From positions 7,597 to 71,596 of the forward strand of contig DAIDDL010000022.1 of the NCBI GenBank assembly GCA_027309085.1: a DNA stretch of 64,000 nucleotides, read 5' to 3'. Position numbers and translations under genes: made by a program. Origin of the DNA: Sulfobacillus sp. (GTDB taxonomy: Bacteria; Bacillota; Sulfobacillia; Sulfobacillales; Sulfobacillaceae). Below, piece by piece: positions 23,300 to 29,710 of the stretch. Under the pieces are notes generated by a model. That model had not been told where the DNA came from and made no database searches. It was given only the letters and a program-made list of their open reading frames with translations. Within the stretch, counting starts at the first letter, position 1, and each line of letters starts with the position of its first letter.

Positions 23300-23329
23300 A
23301 GTATACTGGTTTTTGCGCCATCTTTTCAC
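23300..23329 (-). promoter_or_regulatory. Promoter of the HIT-to-glycosyltransferase operon
   Basis: On the minus strand GTGAAA (23329-23324), 18-bp spacer, TATACT (23305-23300). The -35 overlaps the stop codon of the upstream MFS gene. Confidence 0.6.
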
Positions 23330-24424
23330 GAGGCGGCTCGTGGGCGGAATTCCGGAAGCTTGGGAATCGCCGCCAGGGAAACCACCGTCATCCCCACCAG
23401 GCACCAGACAGGGACTACCGGTCCGAAACGGCCCGCCAGCGCGGTCAGGGGCAGAACCAGCAGCGCCCCCACCCCATTGGCCAGCCCCAGCGCCACCCCC
23501 GACCCCATGGCTGGGTTGTCAGGGAAAATGTCCTGGCCCATGAGCATGGTCAGGGAAGACGTGCCAAACAGCGCGATGCCGAGGACCGCCAAAATAGGCC
23601 ACATGTACTCCGGCGGCAAGGCGATGTACAGGAGCAGGCAGAGAATGGCCGCCAGCGTCGTCACCCATACAATGGGCAGGCGGCCCGTGCGCTCGCTGAG
23701 ATATCCGCCGGACAGGTTGCCGGCAATCCCCACCCCGATAAATACGGTGACGAGAGACGCCGCCCCCACCAGGGAGCCCCCGCGCGCATGCCAGATGATC
23801 GGGGACAAGGTCACCAGTTCATAAATTGTCGCCGAGCGCACCGAGGAGAACACAATCAGCCAGGCCGCCCGCTTGCCGTGCCCGGCCCAGTGGAAAGGGA
23901 CCAACGAGCGTCCCCTGGCCGGGGCCCCCGCCGGAATGCGCCTGAGGAGCCAGGGAAAAGAGACAATCAGCGGCACCGCCATCAACCCCAGCGCTGCCAT
24001 TCCAAAATGTCCCACAAGAAAACCAGCCACCGCTGGCGACGCGGCCCGGCCCAGTTCCCCTCCCACCAGAAACACCGCCATCAGCAGTCCGGGATTGGCG
24101 GTCGCCAGCCGCCGCGACTGGGACAGCGCCTGGGGGTGAAACAGCGTATTGCCCAGTCCGGTAAGGATCAGGACCACAATAATCCATCCCGCCCCGTGCA
24201 CCGGCCCGAGGAGGATGGCCCCCGCCATCGTCAGGCCGACACCGCCCAAAATCAGGCGGCGGCCCCCCAGCTGGTCAGCCCACAAGCCCGACAGGGGCTG
24301 AAGGGTCTGAGCCAGAAGGAGAGCCGTCATGAACGAGCCGATCACCGCCAGCGGAATGTGCCGCTCTGTCGCTAAAAAAGGCAAAATGCCGGGCAGGTAG
24401 TTGGCTAGCCCGGCATTCATCCAG
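23326..24424 (-). pseudogene. MFS transporter, 3' part of a gene split by the IscB element
   Basis: The larger part of a 12-helix MFS protein of the fosmidomycin-resistance-like type. It opens at NAGLANYLPGILPFL, in the middle of helix 1, with no ribosome site before its first ATG (24420). The missing 22 codons lie at 26111-26175: joining base 26111 to 24424 gives ...HFVN-W-MNAGLANYL in one frame, 387 residues in all. As it stands the protein lacks its N-terminus and is probably not made. It follows nagB in the recycling operon, so it may have moved amino sugars, muropeptides or products across the membrane; this is inference. Confidence 0.85.
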
Positions 24425-25832
24425 TTGCGCGGGAAACCCCGGCGTTCAGGCCGGGGAGGGATAGCGCGGCGGCGTTAGCCGCCCCTATTCCCGCATCTCC
24501 TTGTGTATTGGCTATCTTGGTCCACACATACCCATAACCGTCTCCCCTCTGAATCAGAGTACAGAAACGGTGATGGATGCCTTGTACCAGCCCGTTTTCG
24601 GCCTGGATGTTGAAACTTCCACTGGCGCGAATGGCGACACGGCCCAGATAAGTACCCGCTTTTTTGCCAGTGATCACGATGGCTTTCACCAGGTCCCCGG
24701 TCTGGAACCCGAAGGCGCTTTTGCTGCGGGTCAGGTATCCACGCGGGAAGCCGTGTCTCGTCAGGCGCGTCCGCTGGTAGCTGCCGCGTCCAGTCGCCTT
24801 GGTGCTGAGTACGGGCTGTTGCCAATTCTCAAGGGCATCAACGTGCCCTACGCAGGCGGCGTCGAGACAATGCTTTTTCGGTACCTGCAACCGGTGACGG
24901 TTGTGCTTGGTCCGGCCACCGCTGGCGACTTCCACGTTCAGCCCTGTAGCCTTGAGTCGCTGAAACAACGCCCATCGGGTACTGTTCGCCGCCGCCGCGT
25001 CGCGCAATGGAGCCTTGGCCTGGGTCAGTATCTTCCGTGCGCGTTCCGGCCCCTTCGCCAGAAACTGTTCCAGCGACATATTGCCCTTGCGCTGGTTGCA
25101 GTCGTGACAGGCGATAGTGAGGTTGCTTACGCGGTCGCTGCCGCCTTTGGAGCGGGGGTGGATGTGGTCGATTTCGAGCGGCACGTTCCGGGCGCCGCAA
25201 TAGGCGCATTCCCGGCTCCACTTCTCCAGCAAATATTCCCGGACTTCGTAACCCTGGAGTTCCCCTTGTTGATATTCGATGCCTGAAATTTCAGCGTTCT
25301 GCATGGCCTGTATGTCGAAGCGCACCAGTTCCTGCGACAACGCCGTAACCGGCGCCATACGCATCAGCTTATTGACCCATGCCAGCGTCGTATCGACCCG
25401 GTGCCGCAGACTAGGAGCTAACCAGCCTTCGGGCTTCGTGCGGTTATTAAAACGCGCGAGACGGTACCTTAACCTTGATCGACGAAAACGACGATGCCCC
25501 CGGCGCTGGGTGAGTGCATCCCGGATAGCCTGGCCCCGGTGCTGCAACTCCAGCAGCATAAGCACCGCGGCCTTGCGGATGACCTCGCCGGTCGTGCCGT
25601 CCACCGTTTCCGACTCCCGCACCAGGGCCACGCCCGTGGTCTTGCTGCCGGGGTCCAGTTTCAGGCGCAGAGGCTGCAAAACGGAATCCTCCTGCAACCG
25701 ATCCACCAGCCGGATAGTGAACGGCACCATGCGATGCACCCGCGCCCGTCCACGTTCCAGCAGCAGCCGCGCCCGTTTCTCCGAGCACGGCATCAGCGGT
25801 TTCTTTCTTTTGTCCAAAACAAATACAGCCAT
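24417..25832 (-). CDS. iscB: IscB RNA-guided HNH/RuvC nuclease
   Basis: A 471-residue IscB, the group from which Cas9 arose. Order: PLMP domain (residues 1-45, PLMP at 12-15), RuvC-I with Asp60 in LDPGSKTTG, Arg-rich bridge helix at 110-130, RuvC-II with Glu168, HNH at about 209-250 (CAYCG, then EIDHIHPRSKGG with Asp222/His223, CHDCNQRKGN), and RuvC-III with KKHCLDAACVG (His321, Asp324). All nuclease residues are present. The C-terminal tail and stop codon read into the right end and the flanking host gene. The start follows GGGGAGG. No transposase is encoded in the element. Confidence 0.93.
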   Translation of the reverse strand: MAVFVLDKRKKPLMPCSEKRARLLLERGRARVHRMVPFTIRLVDRLQEDSVLQPLRLKLDPGSKTTGVALVRESETVDGTTGEVIRKAAVLMLLELQHRGQAIRDALTQRRGHRRFRRSRLRYRLARFNNRTKPEGWLAPSLRHRVDTTLAWVNKLMRMAPVTALSQELVRFDIQAMQNAEISGIEYQQGELQGYEVREYLLEKWSRECAYCGARNVPLEIDHIHPRSKGGSDRVSNLTIACHDCNQRKGNMSLEQFLAKGPERARKILTQAKAPLRDAAAANSTRWALFQRLKATGLNVEVASGGRTKHNRHRLQVPKKHCLDAACVGHVDALENWQQPVLSTKATGRGSYQRTRLTRHGFPRGYLTRSKSAFGFQTGDLVKAIVITGKKAGTYLGRVAIRASGSFNIQAENGLVQGIHHRFCTLIQRGDGYGYVWTKIANTQGDAGIGAANAAALSLPGLNAGVSRATG

Positions 25833-26110
25833 ACATCCTCCCCTGTCCTTACGGACGCTTGTGACTCAGGCTATCGCCTGTATCCCCTCGGGAATGTCTG
25901 CAACCGGCTCCTACCTGTGATGGCAGCGGCTGGAACCTTCGGCGCTTTGCCTTTCGCCAGCATGATTCCGGCCTTGCAGAGCGGCGAACTGAGGAAGCAT
26001 TCGCCGGTGCGTCTTGACGACCCATTGGAAACGTAGCGGACTGGTTACCGCTTTCCCTGGTCAACCTAGCCTGCGCTACCTTGCAAGCTCCGGCCTTCAG
26101 GCCGGGGTGA
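24425..26110 (-). mobile_element. IscB-type IS200/IS605-like element, 1,686 bp, inserted in an MFS gene
   Basis: The limits come from rejoining the host gene: left flank ends GTCAA (26115-26111), right flank begins CTGG (24424-24421). Because CAA is present both in the left flank and at the right end, the true edges may shift by up to three bases. A GC-rich hairpin is near each end: GGCCTGAAGGCC close to the left end and CCCCGGCCTGAACGCCGGGG close to the right end. There is no target duplication, as expected for this superfamily. The element carries only iscB and its guide RNA region, so movement would need TnpA in trans. Confidence 0.85.
25833..26110 (-). ncRNA. Probable IscB omega RNA region
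   Basis: IscB guide RNAs are encoded upstream of iscB, with the guide at their 5' end taken from the left flank. The 278 non-coding bases between the left end and the iscB ATG fit in size and place. A left-end hairpin (GGCCTGAAGGCC) and a hairpin GTCC-GTAA-GGAC just before the iscB ribosome site are visible. The guide would be host sequence at about 26111-26126. Confidence 0.6.
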
Positions 26111-26175
26111 TTGACAAAATGCGTCCAAGTCAGCGCCTCAAGTCCTGGCCGCGAGAACCTCTTGCCCACCGCCAC
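26111..26175 (-). pseudogene. MFS transporter, 5' part (first 21 codons) before the IscB insertion
   Basis: Begins at GTG 26175, five bases after AGGGGGTGA, 18 bases downstream of the nagB stop. It encodes a basic start and the beginning of helix 1 (LEALTWTHFVN), then is cut by the element within codon 22. The matching rest is at 23326-24424. Confidence 0.8.
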
Positions 26176-26193: not shown

Positions 26194-26961
26194 TTATACG
26201 GGATAGGCACCCCGGCTGGGAGCCAAGAGGCGCGCGGCCGCCCGGTCGGCAATCACCACGACGCTAGGGTGGCTCCTCAGCACCGAAGCCGGAACCTCCG
26301 GGGTCAACGGTCCCCGGAACGCCTGCGCCAGAGCGTCGGCCTTGTCTTCCCCAAAAGCCGCCAGGACAATCGCCCGGGAGCGCATGATGGTCGCAAGCCC
26401 CATGGTCACCGCCTGCCGCGGCACCCGGTCCCAGTCATTGTCAAACCAAGGGGCATTGGCGCGTCTGGTTGAATCCGACAGCGCGGCAATATGCGTCTCA
26501 CTGTCAAAGGGCGTTCCCGGCTCATTGAACCCAATATGGCCATTGCGCCCTATTCCCAACAGTTGCCAGTCAATGCCCCCCCGCCCCTCAATCAGCCTGT
26601 CATAGGACGGCGCCCGAGTCTTGAGGTCCGGCCCCTGGTTTGGGGGCATAAATGTCTGCGCCGGGTTCAGGGCCAGCGGGCCGAACAGATGCTGGCGCAT
26701 GTAGAAGGCGAAGGAATGCGGGTCGTCCGGCCCGAGCCCCACATATTCATCCAAATTGAACGTGGTCACCTGCGCCAACGTGATTCTCCCTGCCCGCACG
26801 TGGCGCACAATCCCCTCGTAAATGGGAATCGGGGTGGAGCCAGTCGCCAGCCCCAATACCGAACGGGGGAAATTTTCCACCTGCTGCGCCGCCAGGTCAG
26901 CCACCCGGGCGCCCGCTTCTTCTGCCGTAGCAAATACTTCCAGATCCATCACTTCGCGCAT
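26194..26961 (-). CDS. nagB: Glucosamine-6-phosphate deaminase
   Basis: Converts GlcN-6-P to fructose-6-P and ammonia. The 255 residues show LGLATGSTP for phosphate binding, NLDEYVG with Asp71-Glu72, and LLGIGRNGHIGFNEPGTPF with catalytic His142 and Glu147, as in Gram-positive NagB. ATG 26961 follows AAAGGAG. It lies between nagZ and the split MFS gene and gives the operon its outlet into glycolysis. No nagA is present in the window; deacetylation may instead be done by the PIG-L protein of the same operon. Confidence 0.92.
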   Translation of the reverse strand: MREVMDLEVFATAEEAGARVADLAAQQVENFPRSVLGLATGSTPIPIYEGIVRHVRAGRITLAQVTTFNLDEYVGLGPDDPHSFAFYMRQHLFGPLALNPAQTFMPPNQGPDLKTRAPSYDRLIEGRGGIDWQLLGIGRNGHIGFNEPGTPFDSETHIAALSDSTRRANAPWFDNDWDRVPRQAVTMGLATIMRSRAIVLAAFGEDKADALAQAFRGPLTPEVPASVLRSHPSVVVIADRAAARLLAPSRGAYPV

Positions 26962-26983: not shown

Positions 26984-28534
26984 TCACGCCCGGTATCCCC
27001 GCGGATATGGGCCGACCGCTACCGGCAGGCTCCCCAGACTTTGGCCCCTGCCCGTCAGGGCGGCAAGCGCCGCGCGAATCATCCACGGGGTATTCTCATA
27101 GAGGGCATAGACTCTTTGGGCCTGGGCATACTGCTCCATGCCGTAGGGGGTGTGCGTGAGCAGCACCGCCGCATGCGGGTGCCCGTTCACCAGATCGAGC
27201 ACCCGGGCGTCCGGCTGTCCCTGCCCTGCCGTCACCAGCACAAGCCAGTCCGCGCTCCGAATCCACGGCTCATCGAATGGCCCCGGCACAGAAAACAACC
27301 GGACCTGGCTGCCCGCCAGAAATTCCTGCACCGTCTGCCAGGTCCCGCCAGCTGCCGGCCCCGCCGCCACCATCCGGGGGCCTGGGCCGTCAACCACCAG
27401 CGCCACTGACTGCGGCTGGCTCCATGAAGCGCCCCGGTCGCTTAGCAGCGTCAGGGCTTCGCGGGATCCACGGATTTGGAGGGCCTGCGCTTCTTCCCGG
27501 GCGGACTCGAACAGTTCCGGCCCCTGATCCCCGGCAATGGCCCGCTTCAGCTGGGCAATGCGGGAAGCCGCCTCTTCGAGCCGAGGTAGGGGAAGCTCAC
27601 CCTTGTCCACAGCCTCCTCAATGGCCGCGATGGCCTCTTCCTGCAGATCCAGATGGTGGGAGACCATGACCATGTCCGCCCCCGCCAACAGCGCCAGCAC
27701 AGCGCCGCGGCCGACCCCCACGCCCTGCGCTATCGCATTCATCTCCAGACAGTCCGTGGTAATCATGCCCCGAAAACCCAAAGTCCCGCGCAAGAGACCG
27801 GTCAGCACCGCCGGAGACAGCGTTGCCGGAAAATGGGGGTCGAGCTGCTCAAACACAATGTGGGCCGTCATCAACGCCGGGACTCCCGCCTCAATCGCCG
27901 CCTTGAAGGGCACCAGTTCCACCTCCTGCATGCGTTTCAGGGTGTGGTTCAGCACGGGCAGGTCGAGATGGGAGTCGACCCGGGTGTCGCCGTGGCCCGG
28001 GAAATGCTTGGCGCACGCGATCACATGCCCTTCGCGCAGGCCCTGCAGCATGGCCGTCCCCATCACACTCACTTCCCGGGGGTCATCCCCGTAGGAGCGC
28101 ACCCCGATCACCGGATTTTGGGGGTTGTTATTGATATCCAGCACCGGGGCCAGGTCCATATTGATGCCGAGAGCGGCCAAGAGCCGCCCCGTCACCCGCC
28201 CGGTCTCGAGACTCAGCCCAGCGTCGTGGCTCGCCCCCACCGCCATATTGCCCGGCAGTCCGGGCACATCCTGGCTGAGCCTTCTGACCAGACCGTTTTC
28301 CTGGTCTGTGCAGATCAGCAGGGGAAGCGACTGCCCGCTCGACGCAGCCAGGCTCTGCAGGTCCCGGTTCAGTTTCTGCACCTGCGGAAAGGAGGTCACA
28401 TTGCGGGAAAAGAGGATAATATTGGCGACATGGTGTGTCTCAATCAGAGTTCTGGCCTGGTCACCGAGGCTGTCCCCCGGAAATCCGCACACCAGAACCT
28501 GCCCGATAAGGCTTTTCAGCTGCTCTCCTGTCAT
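26984..28534 (-). CDS. nagZ: Beta-N-acetylhexosaminidase, NagZ type (GH3)
   Basis: A 516-residue GH3 enzyme that removes GlcNAc from muropeptides. The NagZ signature KHFPGHGDTRVDSH is at residues 176-189 and includes the Asp-His dyad; the nucleophile is Asp261 in TTDCLEM. A C-terminal Rossmann-like domain of about 190 residues follows, as in Bacillus NagZ. There is no signal peptide, so it acts in the cytoplasm, unlike the secreted B. subtilis enzyme. The start is ATG 28534 after GAGGTG; a GTG at 28546 is also in frame. Confidence 0.92.
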   Translation of the reverse strand: MTGEQLKSLIGQVLVCGFPGDSLGDQARTLIETHHVANIILFSRNVTSFPQVQKLNRDLQSLAASSGQSLPLLICTDQENGLVRRLSQDVPGLPGNMAVGASHDAGLSLETGRVTGRLLAALGINMDLAPVLDINNNPQNPVIGVRSYGDDPREVSVMGTAMLQGLREGHVIACAKHFPGHGDTRVDSHLDLPVLNHTLKRMQEVELVPFKAAIEAGVPALMTAHIVFEQLDPHFPATLSPAVLTGLLRGTLGFRGMITTDCLEMNAIAQGVGVGRGAVLALLAGADMVMVSHHLDLQEEAIAAIEEAVDKGELPLPRLEEAASRIAQLKRAIAGDQGPELFESAREEAQALQIRGSREALTLLSDRGASWSQPQSVALVVDGPGPRMVAAGPAAGGTWQTVQEFLAGSQVRLFSVPGPFDEPWIRSADWLVLVTAGQGQPDARVLDLVNGHPHAAVLLTHTPYGMEQYAQAQRVYALYENTPWMIRAALAALTGRGQSLGSLPVAVGPYPRGYRA

Positions 28535-28564
28535 TTCGCACCTCACTTGTGGTCCGCACCCGGA

Positions 28565-29710
28565 CTAATATAGCAGGTCCGGTGCGGTCTCTTGCTGAAA
28601 CTGTTCAAGGTCTGGCGCCTCACCCTCGCAGAACCCGGGACCCCGCCCTTCCAGAATGCTGCGGCCGAGCTCCGCCGACCCCGCCAGCAAGTCAAAGAAG
28701 GGACGCCCATGCTCCGGCACCGTGAAGGCAAAGTCCGCAGGATAGAGGTCGTGCACCGTCTGCAGCACAGTGATGCCGGCCCGCCAGGACGACAGCCGGC
28801 GCCGGTCGGTCACATGCAGCTGCACTCCCTGGCACAGCTGGCCGGCGTATTCCGAGCGCCATGGCCGGAAGAACACGGGGCGGGCCCGAATCCCCTCCAG
28901 ACCTTGGCGGTTGAAGGCCTGGGCTAGCGCAAATCCGTCAATATACGGCGCCCCTATCAGTTCAAACGGCTTCGCCGTGCCCCGTCCCACAGAGACATTC
29001 ACCCCCTCGGCCAGGCACGTGCCCGGATACAGCGTCATCATATCCACCCCCGTGGTGTTGGGGGAGGACGGCACGAATGGCAGCCCCGTCTCATCCAGAT
29101 ACATCTCCCGCTCCCAACCGCTCAAGGGCACCACCGAGAGATCCAGACCGGGAAGGCGGGTGCGCCGGATCCAGCGCGCCATCTCCCCCATCGTCATTCC
29201 GTGGCGGGCGGGCACGGGCAGCTGGCCCACAAATGAGGTGAATCCATCCTGCACCAGGCGCCCCTCCCTCCGGCCCGAGATGGGATTGGGGCGGTCCAGC
29301 ACCAGGCAGGCCACCTGCGCCTGCTCACAGGCCCCCATCACAGCTGCCAGAGTGCTCAAATTGGTGTAGTAGCGGCTGCCGATGTCCTGCAGGTCAAAAA
29401 TCAGCACGTCCAGTCCCGCGAGCATCTCCGGCATGGGCGTCCTCACCTCCCCGTAGAGGCTGAACACCGGCAGTCCCGAGTGCTCATCGGTCCCCGACTC
29501 CACACTCTCGCCTTCTCTGGCGTCGCTGCGCACCCCGTGCTCAGGGCCAAAGAGGGCGGAAATCTCGGCGGGAAACGCATTTTGCAGCCGGTCAATGACC
29601 GGTGCGAGCTGGCCGTCGCACATGGTGTAGTTGGTGACGACAGCCGCCTTGCGCCCTGCCACCTGGTGCCTCTCGGCGTCAAGCAGACGCTCAATTCCCA
29701 GCTGGACCAA
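28565..29710 (-). CDS. namZ: Exo-beta-N-acetylmuramidase NamZ (DUF1343, GH171)
   Basis: Matches the DUF1343 pattern: ALFGPEHGVRSDAREGE, LPVFSLYGEVRTPMPEML and LIFDLQDIGSRYYTN in the first half, and PYIDGFALAQAFN later. NamZ of B. subtilis (YbbC) cleaves MurNAc from the non-reducing end of peptidoglycan fragments. Length of 381 residues is slightly short of secreted homologues because there is no signal peptide. The TTG at 29710 follows GAGAGGGGG. The canonical TNQTG stretch reads TNYTM here. Confidence 0.85.
   Translation of the reverse strand: MVQLGIERLLDAERHQVAGRKAAVVTNYTMCDGQLAPVIDRLQNAFPAEISALFGPEHGVRSDAREGESVESGTDEHSGLPVFSLYGEVRTPMPEMLAGLDVLIFDLQDIGSRYYTNLSTLAAVMGACEQAQVACLVLDRPNPISGRREGRLVQDGFTSFVGQLPVPARHGMTMGEMARWIRRTRLPGLDLSVVPLSGWEREMYLDETGLPFVPSSPNTTGVDMMTLYPGTCLAEGVNVSVGRGTAKPFELIGAPYIDGFALAQAFNRQGLEGIRARPVFFRPWRSEYAGQLCQGVQLHVTDRRRLSSWRAGITVLQTVHDLYPADFAFTVPEHGRPFFDLLAGSAELGRSILEGRGPGFCEGEAPDLEQFQQETAPDLLY

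What the first reader, a model, noticed from the sequence alone, without database searches (positions are those of the whole stretch)
24425..26110. IscB element cuts an MFS gene at codon 22 and would restore it exactly if removed
The 65 bases from GTG 26175 to 26111 and the frame from 24424 to 23326 join into one 387-residue MFS protein with an uninterrupted first helix (HFVN-W-MNAG). The element between them holds a catalytically complete IscB and no transposase. It sits in the last gene of a peptidoglycan recycling operon. This is a clear donor-site case: if excised, the restored site would itself match the IscB guide, fitting the proposed role of these nucleases in element retention.
Basis: partly seen in the sequence, partly recalled or inferred. 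Interest (0 to 1): 0.85.

Follow-up and report, generated by a model that had tools for sequence, protein, structure and literature searches.

The report
IscB transposon splitting an MFS gene

Summary
The interruption is real, but the boundaries and predicted junction are wrong. The element is window 26115-24421, minus strand, 1695 bp, not 26110-24425. All 12 HEARO/omega-RNA copies in this genome begin with GTCA, and well-preserved copies of this subfamily end ...GCAACTGG (or close to it) immediately before ATGA. A 74%-identical orthologue in the same genus reads CATTTT|ATGAATG, and no aligned homologue has 'VNW'. The element is an ordinary non-autonomous IS200/IS605-like ISC/HEARO unit: complete IscB, omega RNA, subterminal hairpins, no transposase; Y1 TnpA genes lie elsewhere. 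Target and proposed TAM coincide (ATGA; IsrB relatives use NTGA), so guide target plus TAM meet only in the empty site, fitting the known retention model. Activity was not tested. Two features deserve follow-up. In this IscB clade the target's own TGA closes the IscB frame while the same ATGA gives the downstream frame an ATG. And HEARO elements are enriched 7-12-fold directly before start codons (p about 1e-7), including one before the only accA found in its draft genome.

The parts
24421..26115 (-). complete ISC/HEARO (IS200/IS605-like, transposase-less) element, 1695 bp, GTCAATCACCCC...CGCGCAACTGG
   Evidence: ends shared with other HEARO copies of the genome, end-to-end blastn, empty site in the G004 orthologue
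25876..26115 (-). HEARO / omega RNA scaffold
   Evidence: Rfam RF02033, 106.6 bits against gathering 83, model 1-211
26116..26131 (-). host flank that would be the 16-nt guide of the omega RNA (GACTTGGACGCATTTT)
   Evidence: position relative to the scaffold start; guide length from general knowledge of IscB; inference
24417..25832 (-). IscB, 471 aa, RuvC and HNH motifs present; its TGA stop (24417-24419) lies in host DNA
   Evidence: NF040563 460 bits against cut-off 175; RRXRR and HNH; alignments with solved IscB chains; motif positions
24417..24420 (-). ATGA: insertion target and proposed TAM; supplies IscB's stop (TGA) and the ATG of the MFS remnant
   Evidence: sequence; same motif right of other copies
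26090..26105 (-). left subterminal hairpin CCGGCCTGAAGGCCGG
   Evidence: sequence
24437..24456 (-). right subterminal hairpin CCCCGGCCTGAACGCCGGGG
   Evidence: sequence
26116..26175 (-). 5' piece of the interrupted MFS gene, codons 1-20
   Evidence: G004 orthologue and homologue alignment
23326..24420 (-). 3' piece of the MFS gene, codons 21-384, still open (364 codons and stop)
26194..26961 (-). nagB-like glucosamine-6-phosphate deaminase, directly upstream
26984..28546 (-). GH3 beta-N-acetylhexosaminidase (NagZ-like)
28565..29710 (-). NamZ exo-beta-N-acetylmuramidase

Best explanation
A non-autonomous IS200/IS605-type IscB element (ISC/HEARO) inserted immediately 5' of an ATGA inside the MFS gene, with no duplication and no loss of host bases, splitting it between codons 20 and 21 (shown). 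It is presumably moved by a Y1 TnpA acting in trans (inferred). Transcription from the upstream operon would carry the last host bases as guide into the omega RNA and on into IscB (inferred). In the occupied locus the guide match is followed by GTCA, so there is no TAM; after excision it is followed by ATGA, so IscB can cut the empty allele and recombination with a sister copy puts the element back (inferred from the known TnpB/IscB retention model). The MFS transporter is probably inactive while the element is in place, because its first helix loses the N-terminal part.
For: Rfam and NCBIfam identity of the two parts. Shared ends of paralogous copies. Empty site in an orthologue at the same gene position, and an independent empty site for another copy: etfB in G004 reads AAGGGAGAGATAGCG|ATGAAAATTTTAG against own AAAGGGAGAGAATGCC|element|ATGAAAATTTTGG. 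TAM of an IsrB relative is NTGA. Five Y1 TnpA genes in the genome. No second, empty copy of the site in the assembly.
Against: No activity was measured. None of the TnpA genes of this genome has ends clearly matching this element, so mobilisation in trans is unproven; one of the five TnpA frames holds an internal TGA. OrufIscB and OgeuIscB use other TAMs (NTAAA; NWRGNA-type), so ATGA as the TAM of this IscB is inferred from the insertion site and from IsrB. Full-length copies in this genome are only about 75% alike, so there is no sign of a recent burst.
Confidence: 0.8

Rival explanations
1. One reading: element 26110-24425, restored protein of 387 residues with HFVN-W-MNAG.
For: It is an open frame of 387 codons, and CAA is present at both proposed ends. 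Pfam scores the 384- and 387-residue versions alike (87.4 and 86.8 bits), so the domain model alone does not decide.
Against: VNW is absent from the orthologue and all other aligned homologues. GTCA and AACTGG-like ends recur in paralogous copies in unrelated flanks.
Confidence: 0.02
2. A stranded relic: the element arrived long ago, has no working transposase partner, and IscB is simply not yet decayed; retention is irrelevant today.
For: No transposase inside; no TnpA with clearly matching ends found; copies in the genome are about 75% alike and several are truncated or frameshifted.
Against: IscB and omega RNA of this copy are complete, and both MFS pieces are still open with no frameshift or stop, which argues against great age. 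Five Y1 TnpA genes are present.
Confidence: 0.25
3. Stop-start bridge: the ATGA target gives IscB its stop and the downstream frame its start, so that IscB translation is coupled to the gene piece behind it; the element tolerates or exploits this to keep interrupted genes expressed.
For: IscB is closed by the target TGA in 13 of 64 elements with mapped ends, including most intact ones of this clade. Insertions lie before start codons 7-12 times more often than control sites. One such element stands directly before the only accA found in its genome.
Against: Most clades have an internal IscB stop and yet also sit before start codons, so coupling cannot be the general reason. In this window the target is an internal codon and the remnant lacks 20 N-terminal residues. 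No Shine-Dalgarno is seen at the element's right end. The accA genome is a draft and a second copy could be missing from it.
Confidence: 0.2

Closest known systems
IscB / ISC elements with HEARO (omega) RNA, IS200/IS605-like
   Same: IscB with RuvC and HNH, HEARO RNA upstream, subterminal hairpins, no target duplication, insertion next to NTGA
   Different: nothing that defines the kind; the IscB frame runs through the right end to a stop supplied by the target, which in this sample is a clade trait
IsrB (DtIsrB and relatives, PMC9581776)
   Same: related omega-RNA-guided protein with NTGA TAM, equal to the insertion motif seen here
   Different: IsrB lacks HNH and nicks; this protein has HNH
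IS200/IS605 TnpB retention system (PMC11870625 and work cited there)
   Same: TAM equals transposase target, and guide target plus TAM meet only on excision
   Different: there TnpB with the guide at the right end; here IscB with the guide at the left end and no tnpA in the element

Membership tests
IscB (NF040563) | full-length match above the curated cut-off | tested here: met
   460 bits against 175, residues 3-329, profile 1-314
IscB (NF040563) | intact RuvC and HNH catalytic motifs | tested here: met
   LDPGSKTTG at 59, QELVRFD at 167, DHIHPRSKGG at 222, KHCLDAA at 320, aligned with solved IscB chains; motif level only
IscB (NF040563) | RNA-guided DNA cleavage | not testable with these tools
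   needs biochemistry
HEARO / omega RNA (RF02033) | covariance-model score above gathering threshold | tested here: met
   106.6 bits against 83, model 1-211, start exactly at the element end
IS200/IS605-type element | no terminal inverted repeats, no target duplication, subterminal hairpins, fixed target motif beside one end | tested here: met
   empty-site comparison, ends and hairpins
IS200/IS605-type element | Y1 transposase TnpA in the element | tested here: not met
   only RRXRR and HNH found in the element's long frame; it is filed only as a non-autonomous member; five TnpA genes elsewhere
IS200/IS605-type element | mobilised in trans by a TnpA of the same cell | tested here: inconclusive
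   TnpA flanks inspected; the end behind the L002 tnpA resembles the HEARO right end but does not match clearly

The most novel reading that the evidence does not exclude
HEARO/IscB elements preferentially persist exactly between the ribosome-binding site and the start codon of host genes because their TAM/target NTGA is a start codon plus A. In one clade the nuclease frame is closed by that same TGA, giving a stop-start overlap that keeps the downstream gene translated, so the element acts as an upstream cistron rather than a gene-breaker, and its guide RNA is fed by the host promoter. The MFS case would be the rarer internal version.
Probability: 0.3. Interest if true: 0.65.

Novelty: new member of a known kind. 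Interest (0 to 1): 0.45.

Why it matters
It is a clean, sequence-verified donor site for an IscB element in a chromosomal gene, with target and proposed TAM equal to ATGA, so the retention model can be tested for an IscB that has no transposase of its own. The wider pattern, insertion directly before start codons with the target closing the IscB frame in one clade, would explain how such elements can sit in front of important genes and obtain transcription of their guide. The papers I could read do not mention it, but the two most relevant ones (the 2009 HEARO description and the ISC description) are not held here, so novelty of the pattern is not established.

Tried and rejected
Pfam scoring of both joined proteins: does not discriminate. 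Search for an empty allele in the same assembly: none, only the occupied site and an unrelated 3-mismatch hit. Matching TnpA: surroundings of L001-L005 examined, no clear partner; L003 and L005 are a related IS200-like pair preceded by TCAT, and L002 has a downstream hairpin similar to the HEARO right end. First alignment of homologues was wrong because loci of minus-strand matches were not reoriented; redone. Coupling as the general reason for start-codon insertions: rejected, since most clades stop IscB before the end. Papers on HEARO and ISC target sites and on IscB retention: not held.

Full report
What is there. On the minus strand the sequence reads GTG at 26175, 20 codons to TTT at 26116, then GTCAATCACCCCGGCCTGAAGGCCGG..., and ends ...CCCCGGCCTGAACGCCGGGGTTTCCCGCGCAACTGG at 24421, followed by ATGAATGCC. 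Rfam's HEARO model matches 26115-25876 with 106.6 bits (gathering 83) and begins exactly at GTCA. The 471-residue frame at 25832-24417 is IscB (NF040563, 460 bits, cut-off 175) with RRXRR and HNH domains and the catalytic motif regions present when aligned with solved IscB chains. No transposase lies in the element.

Where the element ends. Three tests place them at 26115 and 24421. First, all 12 HEARO copies of this genome start with GTCA, and well-preserved copies of this subfamily end ...GCAACTGG, GCAATTGG or similar immediately before ATGA. Second, blastn of the 1695-bp unit against five elements in unrelated flanks aligns end to end. The bases flanking the insertion make the position unambiguous. 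The intact gene has 384 codons, and the cut lies between codons 20 and 21.

'An empty site in relatives that does not equal the predicted junction' is met for his junction. Homologues do have the N-terminal residues, so the gene-interruption claim stands. A second copy in the same genome gives an independent empty site: etfB is preceded by AAAGGGAGAGAATGCC|element|ATGAAAATT here and by AAGGGAGAGATAGCG|ATGAAAATT in G004, with the same spacing from GGGAG to ATG.

How it would work. IscB's guide is the host sequence left of the omega RNA (here GACTTGGACGCATTTT), and the TAM lies right of the target. In the occupied locus that place holds GTCA; in the restored locus it holds ATGA. IsrB relatives need NTGA or NTG, one NTGG (PMC9581776), whereas OrufIscB uses NTAAA and OgeuIscB NWRGNA-type TAMs (PMC13180657), so ATGA is an inference for this protein. 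The element has no tnpA; the genome has five Y1 TnpA genes, none seen next to a HEARO copy of this genome and none with clearly matching ends. Retention by cutting the empty allele is the published model for TnpB (PMC11870625) and is not shown here. No empty allele of this site exists in the assembly.

The target closes the IscB frame. In this element the IscB frame runs through the right hairpin and ends on the TGA of the host's ATGA, so the stop overlaps the ATG that begins the 364-codon MFS remnant. Among 64 elements with mapped ends the same holds for 13: L038, L039, L040, L061, L065, L067, L072, L074, L193 and L204, which share a right end in GG|NTGA, and L092, L099 and L217; in 48 the stop is internal and in 3 it overlaps the junction otherwise.

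Insertion before start codons. Reading the other copies showed many directly before the start of a full gene: a universal stress protein, etfB, accA, a cyclophilin, a short-chain dehydrogenase, an epimerase, smpB, a Cys/Met enzyme and others, with Pfam domains beginning near the first residue in most. Tested mechanically on 58 elements against 3304 other RTGA sites of the same flanks: frame of at least 80 codons plus an in-frame stop within 20 codons upstream, 16 of 58 against 163 of 3304 (odds ratio 7.3, p = 2.4e-8); with a Shine-Dalgarno motif as well, 10 of 58 against 57 of 3304 (odds ratio 11.9, p = 1.2e-7). Left flanks alone are enriched in Shine-Dalgarno motifs in three samples (7 of 12 own against 17.6% of controls, p = 0.0025; 19 of 54 family against 13.8%, p = 1e-4; 15 of 50 named genomes against 13.9%, p = 0.003). 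Caveats: elements were collected by homology, several from one genome; the end finder favoured well-preserved copies and some ends were set by eye; the criteria were chosen after examples had been seen. The p-values are therefore indicative. The accA case (L065, Acidiferrobacter MAG) is notable because only one accA is found in that genome, but it is a 2.1-Mb draft. The enrichment may reflect survival of insertions that do not cut a protein, a preference of the transposase, or both; read-through of IscB is not required, since clades with an internal stop show it too.

What is known. IscB, HEARO RNA, their place in IS200/IS605-like elements and the retention idea are known. From memory, not verified here, the 2009 description of HEARO already inferred ATGA/GTGA as insertion motif. 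The window's element is therefore a new, well-resolved member of a known kind. The closest IscB relatives in the genome collection (72-81% identity) lie largely in acidophiles of other phyla such as Acidithiobacillus and Acidiferrobacter, which suggests exchange across phyla.

Noticed in passing
L065 4398-5354: IscB element of the same clade ends directly before the ATG of accA, the only accA found in that draft genome, with the IscB stop overlapping the ATG.
   Followed up: partly
window 24417-24420 and 13 of 64 mapped elements: The IscB reading frame is closed by the TGA of the host target, while the same four bases give a start codon to the frame behind.
   Followed up: partly
L036-L047, L163-L222, L061-L122: HEARO/IscB elements sit directly before start codons far more often than control sites (16 of 58 against 163 of 3304).
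   Followed up: partly
L045 (G000:C139) and L227-L233: A 731-bp HEARO remnant without intact IscB separates etfB from its Shine-Dalgarno; relatives show the exact empty site.
   Followed up: yes
L036, L043, L046: A second HEARO subfamily in the same genome starts GTCATAG and sits before GTGA rather than ATGA.
   Followed up: partly
L187, L196, L214: Some family members appear to sit before GTGG or ATGG, matching the NTGG TAM reported for BbIsrB.
   Followed up: no
L002 332-780: A Y1 TnpA gene is followed by a hairpin resembling the HEARO right end; possible partner transposase.
   Followed up: partly
L061-L068, L072, L074: Closest IscB relatives lie largely in bacteria of acid habitats from several phyla, suggesting horizontal spread.
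   Followed up: no
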